A stretch of 64,000 bases of DNA from Nephromyces sp. MM_2019 (lineage: Eukaryota > Apicomplexa > Aconoidasida > Nephromycida), in the NCBI GenBank assembly GCA_015657535.1, contig JADHZB010001619.1, positions 1-64,000 on the forward strand. The letters are read 5' to 3'. Below, in pieces: positions 8,027-61,800 of the stretch. The translations under genes were made by a program, and so were the position numbers. The notes under the pieces are model-generated. The model did not search any database and was not told the DNA's origin. It worked only from the letters and a program-made list of their open reading frames with translations. Position 1 is the first letter of the stretch, and every line of letters starts with the position of its first letter.

Positions 8027-11000
8027 ATGGAATTATCTTTGAAAAGTGCAGTTTTGAGATTCGCTTGGAGTTTTATTTTAGTGGCTATTCTGCCGGCACT
8101 TCCAGGTCAGAGTTCCTTTCGTGTGTGCTACATCACCATATACCGACTTACTTTTTATTCAACTTATTTGTTTTTGTCTTGAGTAAGCCCTTGGAGTTTA
8201 CCATGTATGCTCGTAGCAAAGCCTGAGTATAGTGTTTTAAGTGCACACGACTGCTGGCGTACTCGTGTTGTTAGAGTACCAAGCCTCAACTCTGTATTCT
8301 TAACTTTAGTTCTAAGTAGCACACTGGAGGTTGAACTGCACAATACCACAAGTTGATGGTATCATAGATACTCTGTGCAACTGCTCATACCTAGCATTTT
8401 CATCGCAAACAAAATATTTTTTTGGGGATGTTGAGGTTACAAGTAATGCCGAAGGCAGATAGTTTGCACCGTGAATCCTGAGGTATGATCACGCAGTTGT
8501 AGTTGCTTTCGTATCCTGCATGCTACGAAAGCAAGCTCAGGACACTTGGCATGACGCTTCGCTAGTATTTCAGTTTGAAAAGCATATTCAGGTACCTTTC
8601 TTAGCTATCTGAACTAATATCTAAAGTACTTTCAGCCAGTGAATGGGAATCGAAATTGCTCTAGACTGCGAGGAACTCTATCATATTCATGAAGAGTATA
8701 TGCGGGGGAGCATGAGCACGAGCACAGTCATGAAGCAATGCACATACTCAATCGCAGTTGGCTCAACGAACACTGTACTGATTATTTTTTGCAACCACTT
8801 AGTTTTTCCGGTTATAGCTCTCTGCGGTGCACTTTACAGTGTTACACCGCTTTTGCCTTAAATGCTAATCACGAGTAAATGAAAAATTTGTTTTGATGGC
8901 TAATATATGGAATGACATACTGAGGCCATGCTGAAGTACACATGCAAGTTTGCTCAAAACGCCCTACCAAATATTCTTTGCCGGAGATGTAATTGCAAAG
9001 CAACTTAATACCAGCTTGTGCTCGCACCATGAGGTCTGGCTCATAGGAGTACCAAGTTTTCCTCTGGGAACTGCAGAATGTACTATTTCCATTACATCTA
9101 ACTATTTAGAGAAATAAAAAGGCGTTTCCTCTTAAAAAACTATTCATGCAGCATGTGCCTATCACAGCAAAACAAATTATGCTTGTAGTAACTTTTCCTA
9201 GTCTGCCTGTCAGCTCTTTGAACCAGATAGCCAATGGTCTGCTGCCTGCGCACATATAGTTGTAAAAGCTGCCTTCGTCTCATGCTTCGGTAGGGGGGGT
9301 AGCAACTTTAACATTTACGGCACATGGAAGATATTACGAGAAAATACAAGTCCCTACGGGCGCTGCTGGCTTTCGCTTGAATTGTTTGTCCCTTTTCATG
9401 GCGTATTTATACATGAGGGTCGGGCTTCTGGAAGTTAACCTCAAGCTTTCGGGAAGTAGAGTAAGTGCATAATGGCTAGTGAATGAAAATCTATTAGCAA
9501 GTAAATTAGCTTTCTAGGTAGCGCATGATATGCAGACACTACTCACTTAGGAATATTAGATTATGTCGAATTTGATGGCTGCTCCCATTGAAAGATAGTA
9601 GGTAACTTCCCGACAACCCTAACTGTTATACCGCTGACACTCACTTTTTCGAGCGAAAAAAATAGACAGCAAAAACTATCTCCTACCACAAGCATATTTC
9701 ATTCCGTTGTATGCACATATTGAATCCTCCGAATGCCGCAGCATGCGCAGATACCACTGAAACCTCAACTCCCCCGGTGGAAATCGGGGGCGCGGCTACG
9801 GAAAATGCTCGGGCCAGCGGATGCATAATTAGCAACTGGTCCGATTGGAGCCCCTGTCAACAATCTTGCAAACCTACAGAGGATAGCATTTCGTATAAAT
9901 ATAGAACGAGGTATATTATTCTACCTCCATCTGCCGAAGAGACTTGCCCAGAATCGGAGCCTGAGGAAGGAGAATTCGAAATTGAGAAGCTCCGTGGGTT
10001 AGGCAACTCGACATTTTCTACCGGCCTTGCAGATTATAAGCTTTGTGAGGACATCCAAAGTTGCAGCGACGAAGATGTAGTCTCTGAGTGGAGCGAGTGG
10101 TCTGGATGCACACAGGAAGTTATCAATCTACGGGGGGATTCAGCTCGATTGGAGTCCCGCAGAAAGTATTTTTATTCAATATCAACCGCTAATATGAAGT
10201 ATATGCAGAAGCAGCTTCCTGGGAAAGGACATAAATTCGCCCAATATAGAATTTGCCGAGGTGATAGCTCTGGGGATAAAACAGAGGCGGGAGCCACGAA
10301 TGATGGGGATGCCACGGACGGTGGGGCTGCAGACGGCGATAAAGCTGAGGTGACCGCTGCTACACCAGGGGTCTCGGCCGTCGCCCAATCAGAAGGTATT
10401 CCCAATGTTTTTGAATCAGGGTAGCATTGACTGCAATTTAGCCATGAAACAGGCGGTATATGTTAGCGTGGGCGAATAGGAAGGCAGCTTATGATATTCG
10501 TACGACTAGGGTTTTAGAGATAATGCTAAATTGGATCGCATTTTTAATTTGGTAGATTAGCCAGCTGACCTGCAACATTAAGTGTTTGAATGATTCGTGG
10601 TGTGCATTAGCAGGCGGAATAAGTTAGATATGACGGGAGAGCACGGTTTGAATAGAGATATTAGAATAAGAAAAGTAGCTCATAGACTGCCTAGTCTTGC
10701 TTGTCATTATTGATTGACTGCGTGACCCACGCCTGCCAAGTACGTGCAAATTGTGCGATTTGTTTCATGATATGTTTTATACCAATCCATACGCTTACTA
10801 GACTCAGTGCTTGAATAGCACAGCATGCTCCCATCTTATGCGATGTAGCAAGTACATTTCATAGTAGTATCTCGGTTTAGGTCCTTTTCCAGTATAGCTG
10901 CTAATTAGCTGCCGCTAGCATACTGAGTAGCATCCTAATTTTATAGCAAAAACTAACTTCAGCACTCACGTACTTAATGGCATGCTTTTCCCGTCCTGCG

Positions 11001-14000
11001 TATACATGAAAATACTGTACAAAGATTTGCCAAGTAATGCCGTTGGGCTGTATCTTTCAGCTTTTTAGCATGGCCATCCTTTGATAAAAAATTGCTGAGA
11101 TATCCCCAATTTTCTTCAAGAAGACTTTTTTGGTGCTTTTCATTCGTTACAGACGCAGTGAAAGCTACTTGTTTGCGAAAAAATGAGCATGTAATGCCAA
11201 AGCTTATGACCATTTGCCATCAACACAATGCTAGCAAGCGCTGTATTGTTAAAGTTATTACTCGTGCTATGTTTTTTAACAAGGTTCATATATATTGCTA
11301 TGCTATTGGTGTTTTATTCATAACAGTACCCAAAAATATTGCATCGGATGATGCCTTCTACGCTTTTAAATGTAGTTTCCGTAGCAGAAACATACTCAGT
11401 AATAATGGCCCTAGGGGCACCTTAAGGGATAAATTCTTCGATGATAGTGGATGCTTAAAAATTTTGCAACGGTGGGAAAAAAAAATTCTTGAGATACTTA
11501 TGGTGATAACGCCATTAGAAAATGTAAACTTGGTAAAAGCAGAAGCTCAAAGATAGCACACTCTCCTTCTTTCCTTGGCCCCATAGATTATGCTTGAGGC
11601 ATGTATAGTATTTTTCATTGCAATGTAGTTAGTACGCATTAGCTTGCTATTTTTTTCAGGGCACAAATTTTATGTAAAAGTCTAAATGGTAGTATAAGAT
11701 TATCGAAATGGTTGCATATAGAGGATGAAAGCTTCCTGACTTGTTTTTCTCTTTTTTATTGTGGTATAAATTAAAATGATATTCTTGGACTAGATTCTTT
11801 ATAGCCGGCGTTTTAGGATATCTAAATATTTCACCTTTGTTTCTAATTCAATTTCGTAGAGAGGACAGCCATTTTGAGAGAAACTGATAATCACACTGCA
11901 ATAGAAATATCCAATGAAATCGAGTTGGGAACCACTTGCGACTCACTAGGGGAATGGACAGACTGCGATGCACCGTAAGGGCTAAAATATAAAATAAAGG
12001 CAAAAAAGGGATCTAAAGGAGTTTTAAAAGCTCTGGCGGTCAAACAAAAATTTAGTATAAAACTTTTCTAAAGATAACTGTGCTTGATTTGCTTATACTA
12101 CTCTACAAATAGTGAGCTGGTTTGGTAGCATGTTAGAAGAATGCAATATAAAACCAAAATATAGAAGCGTAAATGCAAAAGAATACATTTTTATAACCAA
12201 AAGAGTCAGCAAATTCTCTGTTTATCACCGCGCACACGTAGGTGCTTACAAGATGACGGTACCATCCCTATGAGGTACCGGGCAAGATTCTCAAAAAAAA
12301 CTGGAGAGTATTGTGGTGAGAAAATGGAGGATCGGAAGAAGCTGCACGATGATATATACTTTATCTATAAAGAAAATTGAAAGTTTATAACTCTCACCAT
12401 GTAGGCAAAAAAAAGCTGCAATATTTAGCAAGTGATTCCTCAGCAAAATTGTTGAAGTTTTAAGGCACGATAGAGCTGGCAGCATGTAGTGTTTAAGAAG
12501 CATCTAAATGCGCAAATTTCTACCCACTACTGCAGATTTCGTTGAGGCAAATCCATTTCACAAAAACTATTTTTATTGCATAAGCTAGGATAGAATAGCC
12601 GTTCCAATTACAAGGTTAAATCGAAACTGAGGCCTTTTTATCTTGCAGGAAAACTAGAATCTGAAAAATGTCCCTTAACGCTAAGAAAATGCCCAGATTC
12701 AAAAATAGGTGGGAAATATTTATTCTTCAGTTCGTGTGATTGTATTAGGATTAAGTAAGCAGTAGTAAAAAAATCGTTATTGTACGTAGATGGTGACTAC
12801 TTGTATTAAACTCTTTAATATTTACTCATTGTACCGCCGATATTTACTATGCACTAAAATCTGTGACGCCTGATAAGACATTCATTAGGTGCTGGTGGTT
12901 TTGTTCAAATGATTTTATGCGTAACCCTACGTTGCGATGAATTATTTATTTGAAAGTGAAACTATACAGCTTAAAGATTACGGGAGCAAATTATGAAAAA
13001 ATGAAAGCTCGTATGTTATATATAGACTGCAGCTTTGCCAAAGCTATCTACGATGATGGAACTCAGGATTTGGACTGCCAAAAAAGATGTGAAGAAGCCC
13101 AAGAGGCATGCATTAAAACCGAAAAAAATCCAAGTTTACAGTATCAATGCATTAATGCGCATCGCATATTTAAATCTACGGTAAAATTCTTCGAGCGATG
13201 CACTCTCAGTTATAAAGGTTCGCTAAAAAGAAGTGTTTACTAATTATATTTTTTTCATTAGGATAAAGCTTACACGGCGCTCACTATAGTAGTGCTTCTA
13301 ATGCCCAACGCAGCTTGATCACCTAGCCTTCCATGGAAATATTTACAGACTAATAAGTCTACTAGTAGAGGTTTAGATGTGGTTACTTAAGAATAAAAAA
13401 GAGCCTGCAAAACCGTTCTGACAAAAAAAACAGGGGTTACGCTCTCACCAGTGCGGCTATGCTACGTCAATAATTGATATTTTGATCATACTGCGCTAGT
13501 GAAGAAAATAGGGTTTATTTGCTCCTACTGCGCACTTTGGGTGGCAATATATGCACTTGGCCTAGCGCTGTATTGCAAGTACATTCCTATAGGAAAAAGC
13601 AAAAAAAGTTTCAGCTTGTTTTATTTGATTGCTCAATACAATTTCTTTTTAAGGGAAAATAGCAGCGATCGCCAACCTGCGCTTTGGATAGCTGCGTTTA
13701 CTCAAACCGTAATATCCTTATCTTACGTCCTGATTAGAAGTCATTAGTTCACTTGATTTGTGCATTTTGGGGTATTAAAATGGCATCTCACAGCCCTTAA
13801 GATACTGGGTAAACTAGTGGAATATGAAAAAGAGATGTACTTGTGGCTCCGATATGCGATTGTAATATTTAGCAAAATGCCTAGCAGTTTATTTTCCTGC
13901 AAACAAGCTTTACCTGTCTTATAAAAATGTAAAGATACACTTGTCTTCCGGAATGACTGTTTAGGCAACTTCAACTCATGCTTCTTGTCATGGTCTAAGC

Positions 14001-17000
14001 GACATCCCTCTGAAAATTCTTGGAAGCACTCAGAAGTATCTGGGGATTGCAGTTGTGCAGAGGAAAATGCAGTCCCATGCACTAGTGAGGAAGTGTACTA
14101 TCACGCAGCGACAACGCAACAAATAAATGAATATTGCAAGCTCGCGGAAAAGCCTACAGCTGGTAAAACTCCGGCTTTTTTAGCTACCAGCCACTTTGGA
14201 AGAATAAACTGCCCTATCCATACAGGGAAGCCAACCTACGGAACTTTCATGTCAAAATATGAAGTGTCCCGTTACTGCCAATTTGGAACTGTAGGTTTAG
14301 TTGCTGAAGATGTATTAAAGCGTTATCATGGAGGTAATACAGCTGCACGGTAAACATTATCTGGCATTATAGATGATGCTTATGCATTTGTTAACCAGAA
14401 TTTTTTTCTGTTTTGTTTTTAAGTTACGGTGCAGATATTATTATTAGAATTATTAGTATTATTATTAATAATCTGAGACTGCTTTTTCCGATTTTCCTTC
14501 TACCTTGATGAACTGCACTTCAAAAAAATATGTAATAAGGGTTAAATTGAAATATTTCTACGTTTATTAGGTAATGCTGTCATTGCTTCAAAGAGTTGTC
14601 TTAGCATAGGCTACGAAGTAGCGCCACTAGGAGAAAACAATAAACAATGTTTTTTAAGTTAAGTGAGATAATTACCCGGTAAGCCGTTTTAGACCTGTTA
14701 AATTTTGTATGTATTTTCTATTTGTTGGTTAACTGAAACGGAATGTATAGTAGGCTGGGAACAGAGAAGCAAAAAAACTCAAGTAAAGGAAACACAAATC
14801 GAGGCTGAATAAATTAAATATAAAGAAATAAAAACCTAAAGAGGCGTTAGCAAAGCTTTACTATAAGAGTTAACACAAATCCTTACTTGCTATAAAAATA
14901 TTTTTACCTGGAAACTCTAAATGATTATGAATCTTTTGAAAACTCATGAGATGATAAGTCCGCAAAAAAATTTACAGGATGACTAGTGGAAATATTAGAA
15001 GCTGCGTTATGACTGCATGTTATTTACAGACGCCTTTAGATATTCTTGCCGTGCGGGAGCGCCTTCAGCCGACGATCCTCTTGTTGTCAAGAGATGCGAT
15101 GCACTTTGTGCGAAGATAGAGCAGTTTTGTGCTACAGAGGACCAATCCTTTAGCAAATGCGTTAACAACTACATAGGTTTAACCGAGGAATCCGACGCAA
15201 CTTTCTTTGGAGCATCTTGCATCTATGAAAAAAGTACGATAAATACCGTCGCTATTCTCTAGGCTTTTTACAAGCTTTCTCCGGGCTATTTGAAATAGCT
15301 GTTATATGCTGTTCTTTTGATTATTTAATATTTTTTTTGCATTTCAACGATGATTTTAGGCTTTTGCACATTTGTTGCTTTTTCCTGCTCTATGCATTTG
15401 TTCATTACTTCTATTCTCGTAAAAATTTCCAGTGCTGGCTGTGTTATAATAGTGAGAACTAATGCCGAAACAACTAAATTTTATTTTGAACAACCAAAAA
15501 CTTCGTAGAATATATTTTTGGACAATTAAAAGTACCGATAAAAACGAATTTTTATATAGGATGATTTTTTATTCTATTTTGGCCAAGGTTTTCTACTAGC
15601 AATGAAGTTTCAACGCATTGCGCATAAAATTTCGCGGTCAATCACTATGCTTTTGGAGACATAATGTGAAATGGCTAGTATGCTAATCTGAGAATTCGTC
15701 ATCTTTTTTGGCTTTTTATAATATTTTTGTGTAAAATACAGGAGAGAGATCTCCAGAAGATATTGAACAAGCCTTTTTTTACGCTCTTTTCGTTAAAAAT
15801 TGAAACTCCAATTTATTAGAGCGCACATGTAGAGCTTTGAAAAAACTAATACTTCACAAAAAATTAAATACGCCATTTCGAAGTGATGCCTCACAAAAGA
15901 ATAATTAGGTCATTTCAAAACAATAGCACACGAAATAGCAACATTACGGAAACACGAAAACTGAAAATAAAGACCGAAATGTGGCCACAATACTTGATTC
16001 TTGCTAGTTTGTAAAGATTGGCGAAGTTATAATTACATGATTGATGTGCTTAAATTTTCAAAAACAAAACTGAGAATTTTACTTTTCAGCACCTAATATC
16101 GGAAAGGGATTGACTTTTTGTAAACGTAAGTCTCCAAAATGTTCTTTTGTAGTCATTGTTCTCATTAGCTTAGATGTATGCGTATTTTCCCTAAATATAT
16201 ATTGCCGTAGTATGCAATTTAATAAGCAAGATGTGATGGCAAACTAGTGAATGCCGCAATATTGAATGCTTTAAAGTATGCAGTCGTGGAATCTCTAAAA
16301 ATTATTTGCTCATATATACATGCAATATAAACTTTTTTGTACTACTTTTATTTTAGGTATTTTTATGTAAATTTTGCTAATAAGTATAGGAGAGCTTGAG
16401 TTTTCTAAATAAGGTTGAGAAAAATATATGTTCAAAATATTACCTAATCTATTACAGCATTAAACACTTGAAATTAAGAATTTTTTCAAGAATAAGCCGT
16501 GCTTCTTTTTCAAAGCATAATGTAGCTCAGCTGAACTTTCTTCTTTTCCATAATTTCAAACTATTAAAAATACTTCTACTGAAAATTTGCATTTTGGAAG
16601 TTAAAATAAAAGCTTTGCCGATAAAAAAAATATTGTAGACTCCCTTATAAGATGCTTTTTTGATTTTCAGTAAAGGAGCAACCCTGCAAATTTGCAGAGT
16701 GGAGCGAATGGAGTGAATGTACAGCAAGGTAGCAGCAAAAACAAAACTACAGGGGGGAATGACGCAGAGGAAATAGTAAAAGGAATATCATATTTTTTTT
16801 AACAAAAAGCATAAGACAAAACATCCCATTCGGTTATACTCAGTTTTTTTTTTAATTTAGGAGCAAAATTTTTATATCATTCAGTACTGTAGTATTTTTT
16901 CTGAAATTTGCTTTACTTTTTTTTTCATAATTTTTAATAATGCAGCTATTTGGGTTATAATAACACACTTTTTGGCTATAAAAAGTGATAAAGAAGCTTT

Positions 17001-20000
17001 GTTTAAGATTTAAATGAAAGAATTTTTGGGTTAAAATATTTTTTTATGTTAATAATCAGCATCAGGTTATAATTCTAACTTAAAATGCTTATGCGCAGGC
17101 TTGTTTTATGCGTCTGTATTGCTTCATGATAAAAGCTTACAAAATTCAATGTAGCAATAGCCATCTCGGGTTTATTTTTGTATAAAGAATTACGGGTTTT
17201 TGCATTGCTGCAATCCTTTGAGAGTTACTATGCAATAATATTTGCAAATAGTACAGCATTTCTGCCTTTTTTTGCTTTTTTTTTATAAATTTTTCAGTTG
17301 CTTGAGAAATAAATTTGAGTATCCCCAACGTTCGCGCCACCGTAAGCTGATTCAAGGTGCAATTAACGGAGCCATACCATGTGGTCAAACATATGATGAA
17401 GGTACCAAAAAGGCTTGTCAAAAGAAGCATTTACTAGCTCCTCAATGCTTCTTTCTCTTTAGAATAATCTGTTAGCTGGTACTAGTCAGGATGCTAGTTT
17501 ATTTTTCTGCTTTTATTACCGTCATGGGCACTTTTTATCAGTTTCAAAATAGTTGGAAATTTATCATTTTCAAGCATTTCCACAAGAATATTTTCAGTAT
17601 GATAATTATTCTCAACTGATGATTCTAAAACCTTAGATTTTTTTTTAAGCTAAATTTTGCTTTGTGAATTTTTGATTTCCCGGTTTTTAGATCTATCCTC
17701 TTATTAAATTCACAATAAGTAATGCTAATATGTAAATTTGCATGTTTAAATAGACAATTTAAATTTCCAAATTTCTTGTATTCTTGTGCTAATTAAAATG
17801 AATTTTGCGTGTATAAACTAGTGTAGAATGGTATTTTTAAATTGCTACGTATTTAAAGAATTTTAAACATGTTAATGCAGCAATTTTTTTACTTTTCTTT
17901 TAATAGCGTCTTGAAGCGATTTTTGATTTTTTTTTGCAGTAATGTGCTTGTTTTGTGCGATGAACGTTCTTCTTAATCTGAAAAAGTGAAATTTTCTTAC
18001 GGTTTCTCAATTTATTATACTATGCTATGAAATTTTTACAGAAAAATCAAAGTGAAAAGAGCGATTTAAAATTTTTCAGTATTTTTCCTATTTTTTACTC
18101 AAATTTTTATCAGAAGAAATATTCGGACTTAAAATATAAATTTCAAGTCATTATTAACATGTTCTAATACTTTGTATTTCTCTTTTAAGTATTAATAAAA
18201 CTTTTAAATAATTTTTTTTTCACTTTTCAGGAGGAACTCTTCATCAACAGCTTTGCAGCTGGTTACCATCGTGTGGTAGGTTGAATATATTCACCAAATC
18301 TTGGGATCCGTTTGAAATTAATCTGCAGATGCTAGTCACCTCTTTTTTTATTATTTCATCTTGCTTAAATATGCTCCTTCGGGATCACTTTTTTCGTCGC
18401 TTAACTGCGGTATGTACTCTGAAGCTTCCTCTATTTTTTCTGCTCTGCAATTGCAGCTTATTTCGCAGCTAAAATTGGTAGCTATTTCGATACCTAACTG
18501 AAAATTGTGCATAAGTCGCATAAAAATTTTATTTCAACTTGGAAGATTTGTTGAATCTTTCTGTTTTACTCGCAAAGACATAATAAACTTCCTCCTGCTT
18601 AAAAATATTTTTTTTTGCGCTTGCAGATGCTTCAGAATCTTCAAATGCGGATAATTTTGTTTCTTCAGGAGAAGATGAAAATGAGGTAAACAAGAGCCCA
18701 GTTGAAGTGGCCACTTTGCAGAAACTAGGGAAAAGCTTCGCAAGCCATGAGGCTTCTTCGGATGAAAATGTTGCCAAGGAAGATTCCTGCGAGATAGTCT
18801 ATTCTGGAGACTTTCCCACTCAAGAGAAAAGCTATGATAGAGAGGTTCGAACTGTGCAAAGTGGTATATGAAAAAGTTTTGCACCATCTTTTTGGATTCT
18901 GCTTTGAGCTTAAATCTTCTTTAAATATTTTTCAAAGTTGAAGCAGCTTGCTGCGTTGTAAACAATACCTAATTAGAACACTCGTTGCTTATGAGAGCTG
19001 GTTTTTTGCGTATGAAAAAAGCCTTGAAAAAGTTTTTTGCACGGTGATTAGGCGAGCTTTTGCGCTTATTTTTAGAATTTTTACGCCCCTGAAAGTTTTT
19101 GTGCTGCCAATTTTTTTTGTTCATTTTCAAAAAATTCAGTCTGCCTAGCCATATTTCTTGCTTTTTTGCCGCGGGAATGTCACATTTTATAGTTTTTATT
19201 GCTGTGTGAAGGTTACATACGTGTATAATTGCTTACACATAGTCTAGTCAATACTTACAGAGCAACTCATGTTCTTGTCCACAATCTAGAAGAGTGTGCA
19301 ACATTGAAGATGCCCGAAAATCAATGGTAAGTGTTAGCGGCTGGTTCTTGGGCTTTTTTGCTAGAGAAAATAAGATCAGTTTGCAAGGCTTGTTCAAATA
19401 GTTAATATGAACTATGTCTCCCAGTGAGAATATAAAGTTTATTTTATTGTTTCTTGTGAGGAAACCTAAAGATGAAACTACAAATCGAGAGAAATACCGC
19501 GAAAATTCTCGACCGGCAATGAAATTAAATAATTTGGGGTTAGAATACTTAACGTAGTCTTCCATATTCATTTAAAGATCTTCCAGAAAAACCAAAAATT
19601 TCACTGTTCTCAAAATAATCTTTTGTTTTTTTTATCTTCAAATTTATCAACTTCATCATAGAAGATATTTACAAAGAAAAAGAAGCTGTTTTAATGATAT
19701 TTTGCTTTAAACGCAACCATCTAAACAAACAGTTTAATATCTTTTACAAAATATTCATATCACATGATACGAAATTACTCAATCTAATATTTAATCATAC
19801 AGCATTAACTTTTGTTTTTTAATAGAGTCTGATTACTGCTAAATGTTCATATGTTTTCTTTTAGGCGGACTGGATAAAGCATATGAAAAGTATTTGCGAT
19901 AGCAACCCACATAACGTGATTTACGCTGAAGACTTTGGGATCTTTTCGTGTGGCTCATTAGACTTTCTTCCCTACAAGAAACCCCCTGATGCCTTTTCGC

Positions 20001-21154
20001 CACAGAAGGGGTGCGAAACTCAAAAATACTACAACTTTTGCTCTAGTAAGTGCCCAATTATATATTTGAAGATAAAATAGTCCGCCGCGCTTTTTTTTCT
20101 TTATTCTTAGAAAAAAGCACTCCTTTTTTAATTGAGAAATTTCTGCCTTTTAATAAAAAAAATGAATTTATACCCTCTATTTTTTTCTCTTGTACTTGCA
20201 TTAGTCTATATAAAAACTCATTAAAGGTCTTGTATGCAATATATATTTTTGTGTTCTTCAAAGGCTCTAGTCTAATTCCTTTCTTGCCAGCTGAAAATGA
20301 AATATTCTGAACAATATACTTAACTTGCATCTTCTTTTAGTAGTAACTGCTTAAATCACTGCCAATTTTTACTGATGGGCGAGCAACGAGTACTAGTTAT
20401 TCCCGAAATTTCTTATCTTTTCTGGTAATATTTGGGCTTACAGTATTACCGAATAGTTTCTCTAGTTGTAAATAGCCTTATTTTTAGCTTACTAAGGCCT
20501 TCTTGAAAACTGCATGATATCACTTAAGATTTACGAAACTTTATTTTGAGAAGGACTACAGAAATTCTTGGCGCGAACAATGAATTTCTGCCTATATTAT
20601 TTTTAATAAAGCACTTATTTTACTACAAAGGAAGTAAATAAGGCAAAATCAGTGGCATCTTCATATGACTCCAGTACTATTTGAGCCAATAATAAATGAC
20701 TATGTATTTACAAAAATATCTAAAAAAAATTATAAATTTTTCCGGGCTTTTTACTTTTTTGATCATAAATAGTTGATGCCCACTGTTTTAACCTTGAAAA
20801 CCTGCGGCCATTTGCTTTTTGTGTTTTGTTGGATCTTCTGCATGCCATGTGAATTCCTCTAGTGGAATCACGTTATTTTAAGAGTCCGAATTTTGTGCCT
20901 AAAGGGTACTAAGCAATTTTATCGTTAGCTTAAATTATTGCGCACTTTTTTGGTTTTAAACAGTTAAGAAGGAAGATATGCATGGAAACGCGGAGGGAAA
21001 CTTTTATCTGGCACTTTCCATCATCAGTGGTTGCCTCTCTGCAATAGTGCTTACATTCCTTCTTATCCAGTATAATGAAGATCTTCAAATTTTGTTAGCT
21101 CTGAAAACAGCTGCCTCTGATGTGGATAGCGAGGTGCACGAGAAATACGATTGA
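8027..21154 (+). CDS. TSP1 and cysteine-module type I membrane protein (multi-exon)
   Basis: Probable secretory or surface adhesin of about 903 residues. Exons joined by matching GT-AG sites and phase: 8027-8105, 9742-10395, 11860-11974, 12242-12315, 12649-12754, 12970-13217, 13965-14333, 15030-15233, 16671-16728, 17298-17401, 18231-18275, 18627-18844, 19261-19326, 19865-20045, 20964-21154. Most junctions are phase 1, usual for shuffled extracellular modules. Exon 1 gives a signal peptide (basic start, then FAWSFILVAILPALPG). TSP1 cores are WSDWSPC (about residue 59), SEWSEWSGC (about 140, degenerate), GEWTDC (about 276) and AEWSEWSEC (about 625). Cysteine-rich modules lie between and after them. 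A 24-residue membrane span (about 854-877, FYLALSIISGCLSAIV) is followed by a 26-residue acidic tail ending HEKYD. TSP1 proteins of this layout act in adhesion, motility or invasion in Apicomplexa; the role here is inferred. Least certain are the exon 1 to 2 link, the 9742 acceptor (9751 also fits) and the 18844 donor. I do not recognise a named orthologue. Confidence 0.82.
11153..11398 (+). CDS. Possible extra cassette exon of the TSP1 protein
   Basis: A stretch open for 154 codons in the intron between exons 2 and 3 has a pyrimidine-rich acceptor (ttcattcgttacag) and a donor (A|GTAATA). Both ends are phase 1, so 82 residues could be included or skipped without changing the frame. The peptide has five cysteines. 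The spacing around ICHQHNASKRC and IYC roughly matches the cysteine module at 15030-15233 (QFC...SKC...ASC), but the second cysteine of that module is missing and the peptide is more hydrophobic. It is either a diverged third module copy or a chance open frame. Confidence 0.4.
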
Positions 21155-55853: not shown

Positions 55854-58800
55854 TTATCCACTGTGTGGCGGAGTGTTTCCACGAGTTACCCAACATGCCA
55901 CTACTGTGATATCGTCCATTTTACCCCCGATATAATGGAAGCCTGAGCATCTTGCGTGCTTCATAAAAGGAGTCTTTGCATGGGGATCCTTACTGAAGGA
56001 AAAAGAGTTTAGATGAAAAATGCAAGTCTCAAAGGGAGAAGTTCGAGGAGAGCAATCTAGAAGCAAACCAAAAAATGCTGTATTTCTCGCGTGAAATTGG
56101 CATCTTAATTTTTCTCCAAATTTCCGATATTTTTTAGAAAAATGAGGCACTCAAGTGGAAGTAAATGAAGCTATATCGTGGGGTTAGCAAAACCGCAGCA
56201 GGAAAAGAATTTGAAAAGTGCCTTTAATTAACGAGTAAAAAAAAAAGGTTTAGAATATGCATCCAATGCAATATTTAGGCTTTTTTGATTCTACATAGAG
56301 CAAACAAACGGAACAAATTTTACTCTGTCGAGTGTTGCTAGAAAAATTATTTTTAAGAAACAAAAAGAGTTGCACACAGAATAAACTGAAACTTTGTAAG
56401 CAATAAGCAAAGCCCAAGTGTTAGATAACACACAGAAAAAGATAGAAGAAGATGAGTTGCATTGACAGACAAATTACGGCGTCAAATAAAGCAAAATGAA
56501 GAGATTATTATGTGCAGTTTTCTTTGATAAAACCAAGATATGACGCGAAACTTCAGCGGGAGCAAAGCACAGGCAAACCCAGCTGGGTTTAGCAGATGGA
56601 AAAAAGCAGCAAATTCTATAGTGGTGGTCATGGATATCAAAGTATCCTCCCAAGTGCAAAATCTTCAGGATCCCACAAACTTCCCCAAATCACATCATCC
56701 TCCCCAACCATTAAAATCCTACAAACTTTAGAAAACCAAAAACCACTGGGTGTCTTACCTCCTGTACGCAGCAGCCTCAGCTATCGCTGTTGCAACCGTA
56801 GTAGCTGGGGTAACTAGATTGGCGTTGTGAAGAAGCAAGGCTTCATAGGGAGAAAGAGCCAGGTTGGCTAGATCACATATTTCGTAGTCAAAGAGGTTGT
56901 CAAAAACTCCATCAGTACCAAATATTATGAGATCCCCTTCCTGTATATCTACAGTGCTGCAGGAAGCTTCATCAGGGGTGTCTCGAGGTATTATGGTAGA
57001 GCTTTGCAACACACAGATTAAAGTGCCCTTTCCCTCTTCAATTAGCGCCGGATATTCCTCCGGCGTAGGGAGTCGGCAAAGCTGGAAAGGGCAGTTGAAC
57101 TGGTGCTGTTGCTCTACTGTCCTGCACAGTACCAAGTAGGAGAAAAAGACAATGATTCTGAGAGAAATGTATAAGATTAAATGGTTATCAAATATGCAGT
57201 CATACGTTAGCAGAGCATACTCAAAATCAAGAGACAAGATTTAGAACTGCTCGCAGTAGCAGAGAATTCCGTAAATCTTCATGAGAGCATTGTCCAGTAT
57301 AAACAAGCAATGGACATCACGGCGATAGAACGTAAATCTTCGTGAGAGCATTGTCCAGTAAAAACAAGCAATGAACATCACGGCGATAGAAAAGGTAGCA
57401 TCTTCACAGCAAGACAAAGAATAGGGCACCTGTGAGCCACAGTCATTGCATAAACTCGCTGCCTCCTCAGGCACATCATCGTCGAATCTCCTAAATTGGC
57501 AATTCCGAGTCTTTCTCCGGCATCATCTAAGCAAGCAACTAGAGCAGTAGAAGATCCGACACTACGAGCCTCCTTATAACCAAGATGAAGCAGGGACTGT
57601 GGTCTTTTCTCGATAGCCTCATCCCCTGCACACAGTAAAATTGTTTACAAGGCTTAAAATCTAAAATGCCACCAAAAGTATGAAAAAAACCCATTAAAAG
57701 CATGCAAGTTGCTGCTTTATACGTGTTTTTGAGCTTTTTCTATAGCAATCTTCACTATTATGTGTTGTATAGCAGCTTATACCAACAGAAAAAACCAAAG
57801 TCTGAACTGCAGAATGACTATTAATTTCCGGCTATAAATCATCAAATTGAATACTCTCATTTCGCATATGGGCTACATAAAAAGGGCAAATTTTATCTAC
57901 TTGTGCTTTTGTTTTTGAAGAAAAAAATCCAAAGTAGCTACTCAATTCAAAAAGTACTTCTTCTTCCTCTTCTATAAAGATAATGTGGCAAACCTTCAAA
58001 GTCAAGCAAGAAAAACAGAGTGCAAACTTACTATAGGCCAAACTTTTATAGGCATCCATGCAGCCCTGCATCAATTCTTCAGCAAACATCCTAGGGTTCA
58101 TTCCAAAGCTATCCCACTCTCCAACTCCATCAGCAATGCCCACACAAACTGCATCAAATTGAGAAGCATTGAAACACACACAAAGATTATTAGCAAGCAA
58201 TGTTCGTGCAGTTCAAAAAAACTTCATATCAACACACGAGGCTGAGTGTAATCTACCTGCAACTCAGGATTTCAACCAAAATTATCAGAAACTAGACCTC
58301 TACAGTGTGTGGGCAGTCTAAAACATTCATCTTCACCTACCCCCATGAGAGTTATCGCTGTGTGCGATAAAATATGCGTCCGCTCCCTTGCAATCAGCCT
58401 TGTCTGGGTTAGGTATCATATATGCTCCACACTGAAGAGTAAGGCCCGTTTTCACCTTCGCATCGATTGGAACATTTAGCTTCAGTAGGGTTTCGGGTTG
58501 ATGAAGCAGCTCAGTAACTGATGCAGGCCAAGCTCCTACGGACATACTAGCAACTCTTCGCATAGGATCAATTTCAAGGTCATCATTCATGCTGCTGGCA
58601 TAGGCAGAATTGCAGCGGTTGAGGGGACTGCTTGGTACGTCTGCTTCCCTCTCTCCCCCCTGATGATAAGGAGGAACGTACGGCCCCCCAATCATCTGAG
58701 GGGGGTGAGCAGCTGGAGGGACATCCCCCCAAGTATATGAGCCTTCACCAGTTCCCACTTCATTGGAAGCGTAAGAAGGGCGGTTTTCTTGTGAAAAGTG

Positions 58801-61800
58801 AGGTGGGTAAGCAGTAGTGGCGTCAAAGTTACTTCTTGACTTCATCGAAGAAGGCCTTCCCGACATATTTTGGCGATGCGGTGAGTTTACGATTGTGGGT
58901 ACAAGCGCTCCCGTTCCACCCTCATTACCAGCACCTCCACCAAGTCGAGGATTCTGCAAGTAATTCTCAGCATGCCGTTGTTCAGCCAGCGTTAGATGTT
59001 GTGCGTGCCTCTCCATCCCCCTTCTATGAGACACTTGCTGCTCATTTGCGAGCATACTGCTAGAAATCGAGTTGATTCCAACTCCCCTAGGATGATGGTT
59101 ACCGTTGGGGATACGGTTATGCCCCTTTGGTACCATGCCCGAGTTCGTAGTACTCACTACTACTTCTGAGCCCCAATAAGAGCTAGAGACGATAGAAGGA
59201 TTGCAGACCTCGCTCCCGTCTCTAGATCCTCCCCGATCTCCCCTTAATGAACTCCGTTGCTCTTGTACTGCAGAGCTCCAAGTCAAGTTCCCGGTAGCTG
59301 CACATCGCTTCAGTCCAGAAGATGAGGCTGGGGGCAATAAATGACTAGGACCTTTAGTACTACCAGTATCCATGCGTGGTAGGGAGGGGGGGTCGTTGCT
59401 TGCTACATTAGAAGCTTTAGGAAGGTTAGCATCCCCACCTGAGGCAGAGCTAGTAATGATCCTCACTCCATTGGCTCCCCCCCGGCAGGGTGGGAGAGAA
59501 TACCCCCCCCCCCAGCAGCATTAGTTCGGTGATGCGAATGATGCCGAACTGCTAGTTGCTGCTCTAGAAAGGCCTCAGCAGATAGAGGAGACATTGAGTG
59601 AGCTGAAGACCCCGGCTGCAGCGAATGAGCAGGTACTTGAACGTAGGGTTGCTCGCTGGTAGGTACCAAGGCCTGCTGAAGGGACGGAGTAGACCGCGAT
59701 GACCAGACTGCAGAATTTGGGGAAGCCACTTCGTATTCCGAAGGATACAGTATGCCTCTATCCGCAGGAAACACCGACGAATGCACTAAGGAAGGGAAAG
59801 AAGCATTCTGCTTCTCATGCTGTCGAAACCTTCTGGCCGAGGTCTTCCTCATAATACCTTCCGGAAACATCACTACCACGTTATTTAAGTTGTGATTTCC
59901 GTCCTGCAAGAGAGACAGAGTGAAGATTTCAGGCGGGCTGTTAGGAAGCAATCAAAGTCGCCTTAGCTGATATAATAAAAGAGATCAAAAGCGTAGGGCC
60001 AATCATATATATTTATGGATGAGAGCTATTATATATGTGGATTCTACCCATGTCTTTGAGCATTTATGGGCATAGTAAATAGCAGACAATGCCAGCTTTT
60101 TCTTGGGATATTGAGTATGGAGGCCAGCTAAACTCCAAGATATAATACACTTTTTATTGAGAAAAAAGAAGACAATTTAGGCATAAATGAGAGATCTTCA
60201 AGGGGGAAGAGAAGAGAAAAAACCTTGAAGATTCTGGAATACCCCAAAAATGGAAACTCGAAAACTTGCTCATAACAAAAAATTAAGAAACTTACATCAC
60301 ACATTGGAAGCGACGGGTTACACACCCACTGGCCGTCAATAATGTATTTAAATTGATGATGTCCACCCTTTGACGTTATTGAAGAAGATAGCGCCTCATG
60401 TACGTCCATCCAGTGAAACTTGAAGCGTGGGCACCACTTCAGAGGATAACGCTTTTCCCAGGGAGGATCGCTGAATGTTCCTGCAATCTGAAAAAAAAAA
60501 AAGGGAGAAACGAGAAATCTAACTGTGTGTTCGAGAGGAAGCATCATAAGAAGCACAACTTGAGTGTGTGTGCGCATATACATATTAAATTAAATACACA
60601 AGTTCATCTACGCTAAATGGATGGGTATTCTTGGAGAACAAAAAAGTATCAGGAGAAAACACGAGAATCTAAAGGAAGCATAATATGGAAGAAGAGAAAA
60701 AGTAGTGATTAGCTTGGTCCTCGTCATGGAAAGAGAGAAAAAAGCAGAGAATGGCTGACCCCCCCAGTCTATAGGGAAAATATTCCCTCTTTAACCCCAG
60801 TCTAGGAAGAATCTTTTTGCTACACTGAAAAGAGTGTGAAGATGAAAATCCTAAAGGCTAATGGAATGCAACAATCCTTAAAGTACAAAGCATCAAGAAT
60901 TATACGCCTTTTATGAAGAAATTCGAGTTTATAAGTGGAGACTTAAGCTAATCATATGATGTCGAGTTGGTGCGTGTGCATATTATGTGTGTGTGTGTGT
61001 GTTTGGCTCCATCATACAGGTTACTATCCAACAGTAGACCCTATCCAACAGTAAGCAGAGAAATGAGAAAAATACACTGAAAATTACCACAATTTCCCAC
61101 CAAAATGTTTAGAGCTTACCTCCACGTAAAATGCATTCGGAAAGGTCCACTTTAGTATAAGGTGATGTGTTTCTCCTTGAAAAGAGAGCTCCTTAACTTC
61201 AGGCTTCAAACCAGTCGGAGACTCTCCAGGAAGCATATCATCCTACAAGAAAAAGTGCACAAGAATTAACTGTATAACTATTTCATCACAGGAATTTAAC
61301 CTGCAAAAACAGTGAGTAACGCGTTCTTTATATCATGAAAAAGAATCACAGGAGAGAAATACGATGCATTGCCTCAAGAAGATCATAAAAAGTAGATTTC
61401 GGATATAATGATATGCATTGAAGGTTTTTTTGGTGATTTTCCTCCCAATACTGGATTTTCAGATATCTTCATAGTTCCCGACAATAATTACACATTTCTT
61501 CTCTAGAAACACTAGCTATACCTCCCGAATATATTGATAGCTACCAATCAACTGAATCCCTACCCTTTAACCACACCAAAAATTGCAGTAAAACCACTAC
61601 ACACTCACCAAATAAAAAGATGACGGAATCACTTCTTTCTCCGGAATTCGCACTTGATTCTCAGATAATACGAGAGGAGCCGCCTGCGTAGCAGCTAGAG
61701 CATCACCAAATCTTGAAGGTTCAATTTCGTCCGATAGCTTTTTCAAGTCGCCATTATTGCCTGGGGTGAAAACAAAGGCCTGATTCAAAGGGATATGCTC

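What the first reader, a model, noticed from the sequence alone, without database searches (positions are those of the whole stretch)
8027..21154. Unrecognised TSP1/cysteine-module type I membrane protein
Fifteen exons, matched by splice site and phase, build one protein with a signal peptide, four TSP1 repeats, repeated cysteine modules, a single membrane span and a short acidic tail. I recognise no named apicomplexan protein with this order. No single open frame reveals it, so an automated gene call could easily miss or fragment it.
Basis: partly seen in the sequence, partly recalled or inferred. Interest (0 to 1): 0.8.

Follow-up and report, generated by a model that had tools for sequence, protein, structure and literature searches.

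The report
Apicomplexan TSP1 surface protein gene
A real 15-exon gene, backed by a second copy elsewhere in the same assembly, encodes a thrombospondin-repeat surface protein of an apicomplexan close to the tunicate parasite Cardiosporidium; it looks like a lineage-specific version of a well-known kind of contact protein, with its exact role unknown.

Summary
The gene is real. All 14 introns are GT-AG and phase-consistent. A second, diverged copy on contig C404 has the same exons in the same order: 13 of 14 window introns have a same-phase counterpart, and 10 of 15 exon peptides match in place beyond shuffled controls. Exon 2 passes the Pfam TSP1_spondin cut-off; a second TSP1 is degenerate, and two more are split by introns at the same places. 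Two cysteine modules recur, without credible Pfam or PDB matches. One membrane span and an acidic 28-residue tail follow.

RPC2 of this assembly is nearest to Cardiosporidium cionae (77%), so the source is a nephromycid, probably Nephromyces, in a mixed-species assembly. The tail lacks the TRAP-family tryptophan. Most likely it is a micronemal-type contact protein; organelle, ligand and shedding are inferred. "Unrecognised" stands only weakly: my protein searches were insensitive and a coccidian orthologue is not excluded. Lineage-specific variant of a known kind; moderate to low interest.

The parts
8027..8105 (+). exon 1: start codon and signal peptide; intron 1 phase 1
   Evidence: hydropathy 1.94 over 19 residues; C404 has a signal exon at the same place, but sequence similarity is no better than shuffles (102 of 200)
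9742..10395 (+). exon 2: TSP1 repeat 1 (complete) and TSP1 repeat 2 (degenerate), then a low-complexity linker
   Evidence: Pfam TSP1_spondin 46.1 bits, cut-off 41; 0 of 200 shuffles reach its C404 match
11860..11974 (+). exon 3: linker and first part of TSP1 repeat 3
   Evidence: 0 of 200 shuffles
12242..12315 (+). exon 4: middle of TSP1 repeat 3
   Evidence: position and phase only; no similarity hit in place
12649..12708 (+). exon 5: end of TSP1 repeat 3; donor chosen by comparison with C404 exon 5
   Evidence: position and phase only; no similarity hit in place
13026..13217 (+). exon 6: six-cysteine module A, first copy
   Evidence: alignment A7, six invariant cysteines in 4 of 4 sequences; 0 of 200 shuffles
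13965..14333 (+). exon 7: CxC cysteine module B, first copy (seven cysteines)
   Evidence: 43% identical to C404 exon 7; 0 of 200 shuffles; no Pfam hit
15030..15233 (+). exon 8: six-cysteine module A, second copy
   Evidence: alignment A7; 0 of 200 shuffles
16671..16728 (+). exon 9: first part of TSP1 repeat 4 (WxxWxxC)
   Evidence: 0 of 200 shuffles
17298..17401 (+). exon 10: middle of TSP1 repeat 4
   Evidence: position and phase only; 189 of 200 shuffles score as well
18231..18275 (+). exon 11: end of TSP1 repeat 4
   Evidence: 1 of 200 shuffles
18627..18844 (+). exon 12: acidic and serine-rich linker, start of module B copy 2
   Evidence: position and phase only; 181 of 200 shuffles
19261..19326 (+). 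exon 13: CxC part of module B copy 2
   Evidence: 0 of 200 shuffles
19865..20045 (+). exon 14: rest of module B copy 2
   Evidence: 50% identical to C404; 0 of 200 shuffles
20964..21154 (+). exon 15: membrane span, 28-residue acidic tail, stop codon
   Evidence: hydropathy 2.45 over 19 residues, 7 acidic and 2 basic tail residues; 0 of 200 shuffles

Best explanation
A gene of a nephromycid apicomplexan encodes a type I membrane protein: signal peptide, two TSP1 repeats, a third TSP1 followed by cysteine modules A-B-A, a fourth TSP1 followed by cysteine module B, one membrane span and a short acidic tail. The protein enters the secretory route, is probably stored in micronemes or another apical compartment, is displayed on the zoite surface, binds host glycans or a partner protein through the TSP1 and cysteine modules, and is probably shed by cleavage within the membrane. 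Shown: gene structure, its conservation in a second copy, the domains named (with the reservations given). Inferred from known TSP1 membrane proteins: organelle, binding and shedding.
For: Gene and exon order. TSP1. TSP1 repeats 3 and 4 are each cut by a phase 2 and then a phase 1 intron; the phase 2 intron falls in the codon just before the second cysteine of CxxxC, in both repeats and both copies, so they look like duplicates of one three-exon unit. Cysteine modules. Conserved membrane span and QYxxD[LI]...LxLK tail followed by acidic residues. The C404 span holds GGIAG, like the small-residue rhomboid motif of Toxoplasma MIC proteins (motif recalled, from no call). Other invasion-type genes are kept in this assembly: an AMA-1 match of 25.7 bits over part of the profile, and VWA and TSP1 matches together on C923, C540, C1010 and C269.
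Against: No expression, localisation or binding data. The tail lacks the sub-terminal tryptophan that is the TRAP-family hallmark. The window copy's membrane span has no clear GGIAG-like motif. If the source is Nephromyces, it is reported to complete its whole life cycle inside the renal sac (PMC6320678, passages) and to have become mostly extracellular (PMC7737231, passages), so a host-cell-entry role is not a given.
Confidence: 0.55

Rival explanations
1. It is a partner of the CRMP complex (as MIC15/RDF1 or TGGT1_277910 are in Toxoplasma), sensing contact and licensing rhoptry discharge rather than sticking to the host.
For: In Toxoplasma two single-span TSP1 proteins are CRMP partners needed for invasion (PMC9815656, passages); MIC14/MIC15 also carry N-terminal cysteine-rich repeats (PMC9218915, section 26).
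Against: Size (869 against 2909 residues for MIC15), tail (28 against 97 and 180) and TSP1 placement differ from MIC14/MIC15; TGGT1_277910 has one TSP1 only. CRMP genes were not looked for here.
Confidence: 0.2
2. It is a surface protein of gametes, zygotes or the oocyst, used between parasite cells rather than against the host.
For: Four of nine uncharacterised Toxoplasma TSP1 proteins have transcripts highest in enteroepithelial stages (PMC9218915 Table 1).
Against: Nothing in the sequence points to a stage.
Confidence: 0.15
3. It is a TRAP/MIC2-family motility adhesin.
For: TSP1 repeats, single span, acidic tail.
Against: No tryptophan in either tail, the stated hallmark (PMC9019593, passage); none of the assembly's 15 VWA matches lies in this gene, while four other contigs hold both VWA and TSP1 matches.
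Confidence: 0.05
4. The exons belong to two or more genes, or to a decaying gene.
For: Introns up to 1.6 kb; five of 15 exons lack significant similarity to C404.
Against: Same order, strand and phases in two diverged copies; no exon holds an internal stop.
Confidence: 0.05

Closest known systems
Toxoplasma gondii MIC14/MIC15 (RDF2/RDF1)
   Same: Single-span TSP1 proteins with cysteine-rich repeats; MIC15 is likewise split into many exons (42)
   Different: Much larger, TSP1s in the C-terminal half, tails of 97 and 180 residues, H-type lectin in MIC15
Toxoplasma gondii TGME49_209060
   Same: 876 residues, leader peptide, multiple TSP1, one membrane span
   Different: Seven TSP1 and no other domain listed; here about four TSP1 with cysteine modules between. 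Sequences not compared
TRAP/MIC2 family
   Same: TSP1, type I, short acidic tail
   Different: No sub-terminal tryptophan, no vWA found
Porospora PgTSP-1 and PgTSP_EGF-1
   Same: TSP1, signal peptide, one span, short acidic tail (PMC9250747 passages)
   Different: One or two TSP1; PgTSP_EGF-1 has EGF-type domains rather than these cysteine modules
Cysteine repeat modular proteins (CRMPs)
   Same: Cysteine-rich modules
   Different: The two Toxoplasma CRMPs have nine membrane spans; here one

Membership tests
TSP1-domain proteins | At least one TSP1 domain over a curated cut-off | tested here: met
   PF19028 46.1 bits against 41 in exon 2; PF00090 itself is below its cut-off, 10.4 against 21.6. 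In the six-frame search of the assembly the same stretch scores 38.7, below the cut-off
   Repeat 1 supported; repeat 2 lacks the second cysteine; repeats 3 and 4 lie across introns and were judged by motif spacing only
Type I membrane protein | N-terminal signal and one C-terminal span | tested here: met
   Hydropathy over 19 residues 1.94 (e1) and 2.45 (e15); the 11 other exons long enough and scanned reach at most 0.93. SignalP and TMHMM were not available
TRAP family | Acidic cytoplasmic tail | tested here: met
   7 acidic, 2 basic of 28; C404 15 acidic, 4 basic of 37
TRAP family | Sub-terminal tryptophan in the tail | tested here: not met
   No tryptophan in either tail
TRAP family | vWA domain (usual, not obligatory) | tested here: not met
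   No VWA match on C835 among 15; none in 10 of 15 exons scanned
MIC14/MIC15 | TSP1s in the C-terminal half and tail of 97-180 residues | tested here: not met
   Three of four TSP1 lie in the first half; tail 28 residues
MIC14/MIC15 | Two tandem cysteine-rich repeats of about 300 residues, homologous to theirs | not testable with these tools
TGGT1_277910 (CRMP partner) | A single TSP1 repeat | tested here: not met
   More than one TSP1-like repeat by motif (description); only one is Pfam-supported
CRMP | Nine membrane spans | tested here: not met
   One span

The most novel reading that the evidence does not exclude
Cysteine modules A and B are two undescribed domain types, duplicated together with TSP1, in a receptor found only in nephromycids: an invasion-type contact protein turned into a colonisation receptor in an apicomplexan lineage described as mutualist and mostly extracellular in its tunicate host.
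Probability: 0.15. Interest if true: 0.6.

Novelty: new variant of a known kind. Interest (0 to 1): 0.33.

Why it matters
If the source is Nephromyces, this is a candidate surface protein for how an apicomplexan described as a mutualist contacts its host, and two diverged copies give a cross-checked gene model. The cysteine modules scanned hit no Pfam family (exons 6, 7, 8 and 14) and could be defined from these copies. Beyond that it adds one more lineage-specific protein to a large known kind.

Tried and rejected
Protein homologues: exon 7 (padded with X to 701 letters) gave 23 candidates, none at E<=1; exon 2 gave 188 candidates, none at E<=1. The database does hold apicomplexans (RPC2 control), but the search needs shared 5-letter words and bounds length, so these blanks are weak. 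Pfam: 10 of 15 exons scanned; besides exon 2 only chance matches below cut-off (exons 10, 12, 15). PDB: exon 2 gave five sequences at E<=1, four of them TSP1-type and one thioredoxin (best 0.23, MIC2); exon 7, two module B profiles and the module A profile gave nothing credible. Structure of exon 7 alone: mean pLDDT 32.5, unusable, so no fold search. Copies elsewhere in the assembly: exon 7 finds only C404 and a chance match on C687 with a stop inside (E 0.04); exon 8 finds only itself, not even its C404 counterpart, which shows how weak that search is. In my exon-against-contig comparison the C687 control stretch, fetched because of that match, gave one hit under E 0.01 (exon 7, 9.6e-5, stop inside). 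The extra C404 cysteine exon has no clear counterpart in the window (best E 1.7; exon 7 at E 7.4). C404 flanks share no genes with the window (75 open stretches from three pieces of C404 tested, two chance hits); C835 beyond the window was not tested. In one search shuffles were listed only up to E 10, which can understate them for weak exons but not for the ten that pass. Third apicoplast-like rpoB (L020): its identity was not measured, my script read it in a wrong frame. The SSU rRNA search did not complete. Rejected: TRAP family (tail), CRMP (one span), separate genes (colinear copy).

Papers: no held paper has both Nephromyces and thrombospondin. Sections 24 and 26 and passages of PMC9218915 were read; of PMC9815656, PMC9250747, PMC7737231, PMC6320678, PMC9019593, PMC9670195 and PMC13095730 passages only; the last two gave nothing I rely on.

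Full report
What is there. The window is contig C835 of an unnamed 48.3 Mb assembly of 1,127 contigs. Reading 8027-21154 exon by exon gives 15 exons with GT-AG introns, consistent phase at 14 of 14 junctions and no internal stop. Exons 2-14 hold 48 cysteines. The hydropathy of exon 1 and exon 15 fits a signal peptide and one membrane span; SignalP and TMHMM could not be run.

Is it more than chance? Borders picked to fit are no proof, so I looked for an independent copy. Exon 7 and exon 2 each find contig C404 (E 6e-14 and 7e-4), and the exon 13-14 counterpart from C404 finds the window back. C404 has a full set of exons with GT-AG borders (also picked by reading), and same-phase counterparts for 13 of 14 window introns; window intron 13 is absent there, and C404 has one extra cysteine exon after its signal exon. 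Against 200 shuffles each, 10 of 15 window exons match the expected C404 place (at most 1 of 200 as good); e1, e4, e5, e10 and e12 do not. The best hits of those ten lie in strictly the same order; one control stretch gave a single hit under E 0.01, for exon 7, with a stop inside. The C404 counterpart of exon 5 ends where the window reads ATAG|GTGGGA, so exon 5 most likely ends at 12708 and the product is 869 residues.

Domains. Exon 2 passes the TSP1_spondin cut-off, but not that of PF00090. Its second repeat keeps WSEWSGC but lacks the next cysteine, in both copies. Repeats 3 and 4 are each cut into three exons, by a phase 2 intron in the codon before the second cysteine of CxxxC and a phase 1 intron before the last cysteines, in both copies. 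This shared cutting suggests that repeats 3 and 4 are duplicates. Module A (exons 6 and 8) has six cysteines invariant in 4 of 4 sequences. Module B (exon 7; exons 13-14; the extra C404 exon) shares a CxC...C...C pattern. Formal profile support for both repeats is weak (probability 22% and 5%, E 0.001 and 0.007), so 'repeated modules' rests mainly on cysteine spacing. None of the four module exons scanned (6, 7, 8, 14) hit Pfam, and nothing credible came from the PDB.

Whose gene is it? An RNA polymerase III RPC2 gene of the same assembly is 77% identical to Cardiosporidium cionae and 71% to Cystoisospora, Besnoitia and Toxoplasma. A Nephromyces assembly is described as 1,176 contigs over 5 kb, averaging 36 kb, with long reads from 150 pooled renal sacs (PMC6320678, passages). 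So a nephromycid, probably Nephromyces, is my inference; the contig counts do not match exactly. The Cardiosporidium assembly (2,213 contigs, 57 Mb; PMC7737231, passages) fits less well. Three contigs carry rpoB-like genes with in-frame TGA, as in apicoplasts that read TGA as tryptophan; the two compared are 64% identical. With a 10 kb stretch of C404 at 29.6% G+C against 37.3% for the window, this suggests several species in one assembly. C404 may therefore be another species' orthologue; shared flanking genes were not found within the window, so a paralogue is not excluded.

How it most likely works. Single-span TSP1 proteins of Apicomplexa act in contact with the host, in motility or in rhoptry discharge, from micronemes or, as PMC9218915 argues for MIC14/MIC15, from another apical compartment (PMC9218915, PMC9815656, PMC9019593; passages or sections). 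This assembly keeps an AMA-1 match and contigs with both VWA and TSP1 matches (C923, C540, C1010, C269). The motility-adhesin slot thus seems filled by others. The present protein shows no vWA and no tail tryptophan, so I read it as a contact or sensor protein rather than a motor-linked adhesin. Organelle, ligand and shedding are inference.

Known or new. Table 1 of PMC9218915 lists nine uncharacterised Toxoplasma TSP1 proteins, seven of them with a single C-terminal span. Nearest in size and plan is TGME49_209060 (876 residues, leader, seven TSP1, one span). No cysteine modules are listed for it, and I could not compare sequences. In the held library no paper holds both Nephromyces and thrombospondin. 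I call it a new variant of a known kind, with the reservation that a coccidian orthologue may exist.

Limits. No RNA evidence; each exon was examined on its own; 3 of 3 protein searches are spent, one of them on the RPC2 control; genome searches ignore introns.

Noticed in passing
G000:C1112:7536-8735, C318:4468-5667, C1009:24436-25629 (L018-L020): Three rpoB-like genes with in-frame TGA in loci of 16-18% G+C; the two compared are 64% identical: apparently several apicoplast genomes in one assembly.
   Followed up: partly
G000:C923, C540, C1010, C269: VWA and TSP1 matches close together on the same contigs, on C923, C540 and C269 apparently in one open frame (same frame length reported): TRAP/MIC2-type genes in a nephromycid.
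   Followed up: no
G000:C941:22868-23080 (L029): AMA-1 family match of 25.7 bits over part of the profile: a moving-junction component may be kept.
   Followed up: no
window 17402-17475: Exon 10's frame stays open 24 codons past its donor and adds three cysteines before a stop; read by eye, the C404 copy shows no cysteine there. Possibly chance, possibly an alternative end.
   Followed up: partly
L014:8003-8377 (C404): Extra cysteine exon with a CxC pattern directly after the signal exon, without clear counterpart in the window copy: a module gained or lost between the copies.
   Followed up: partly
window 58333-59520, minus strand: Longest open stretch of the window (395 codons), in its most G+C-rich part; not identified.
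   Followed up: no
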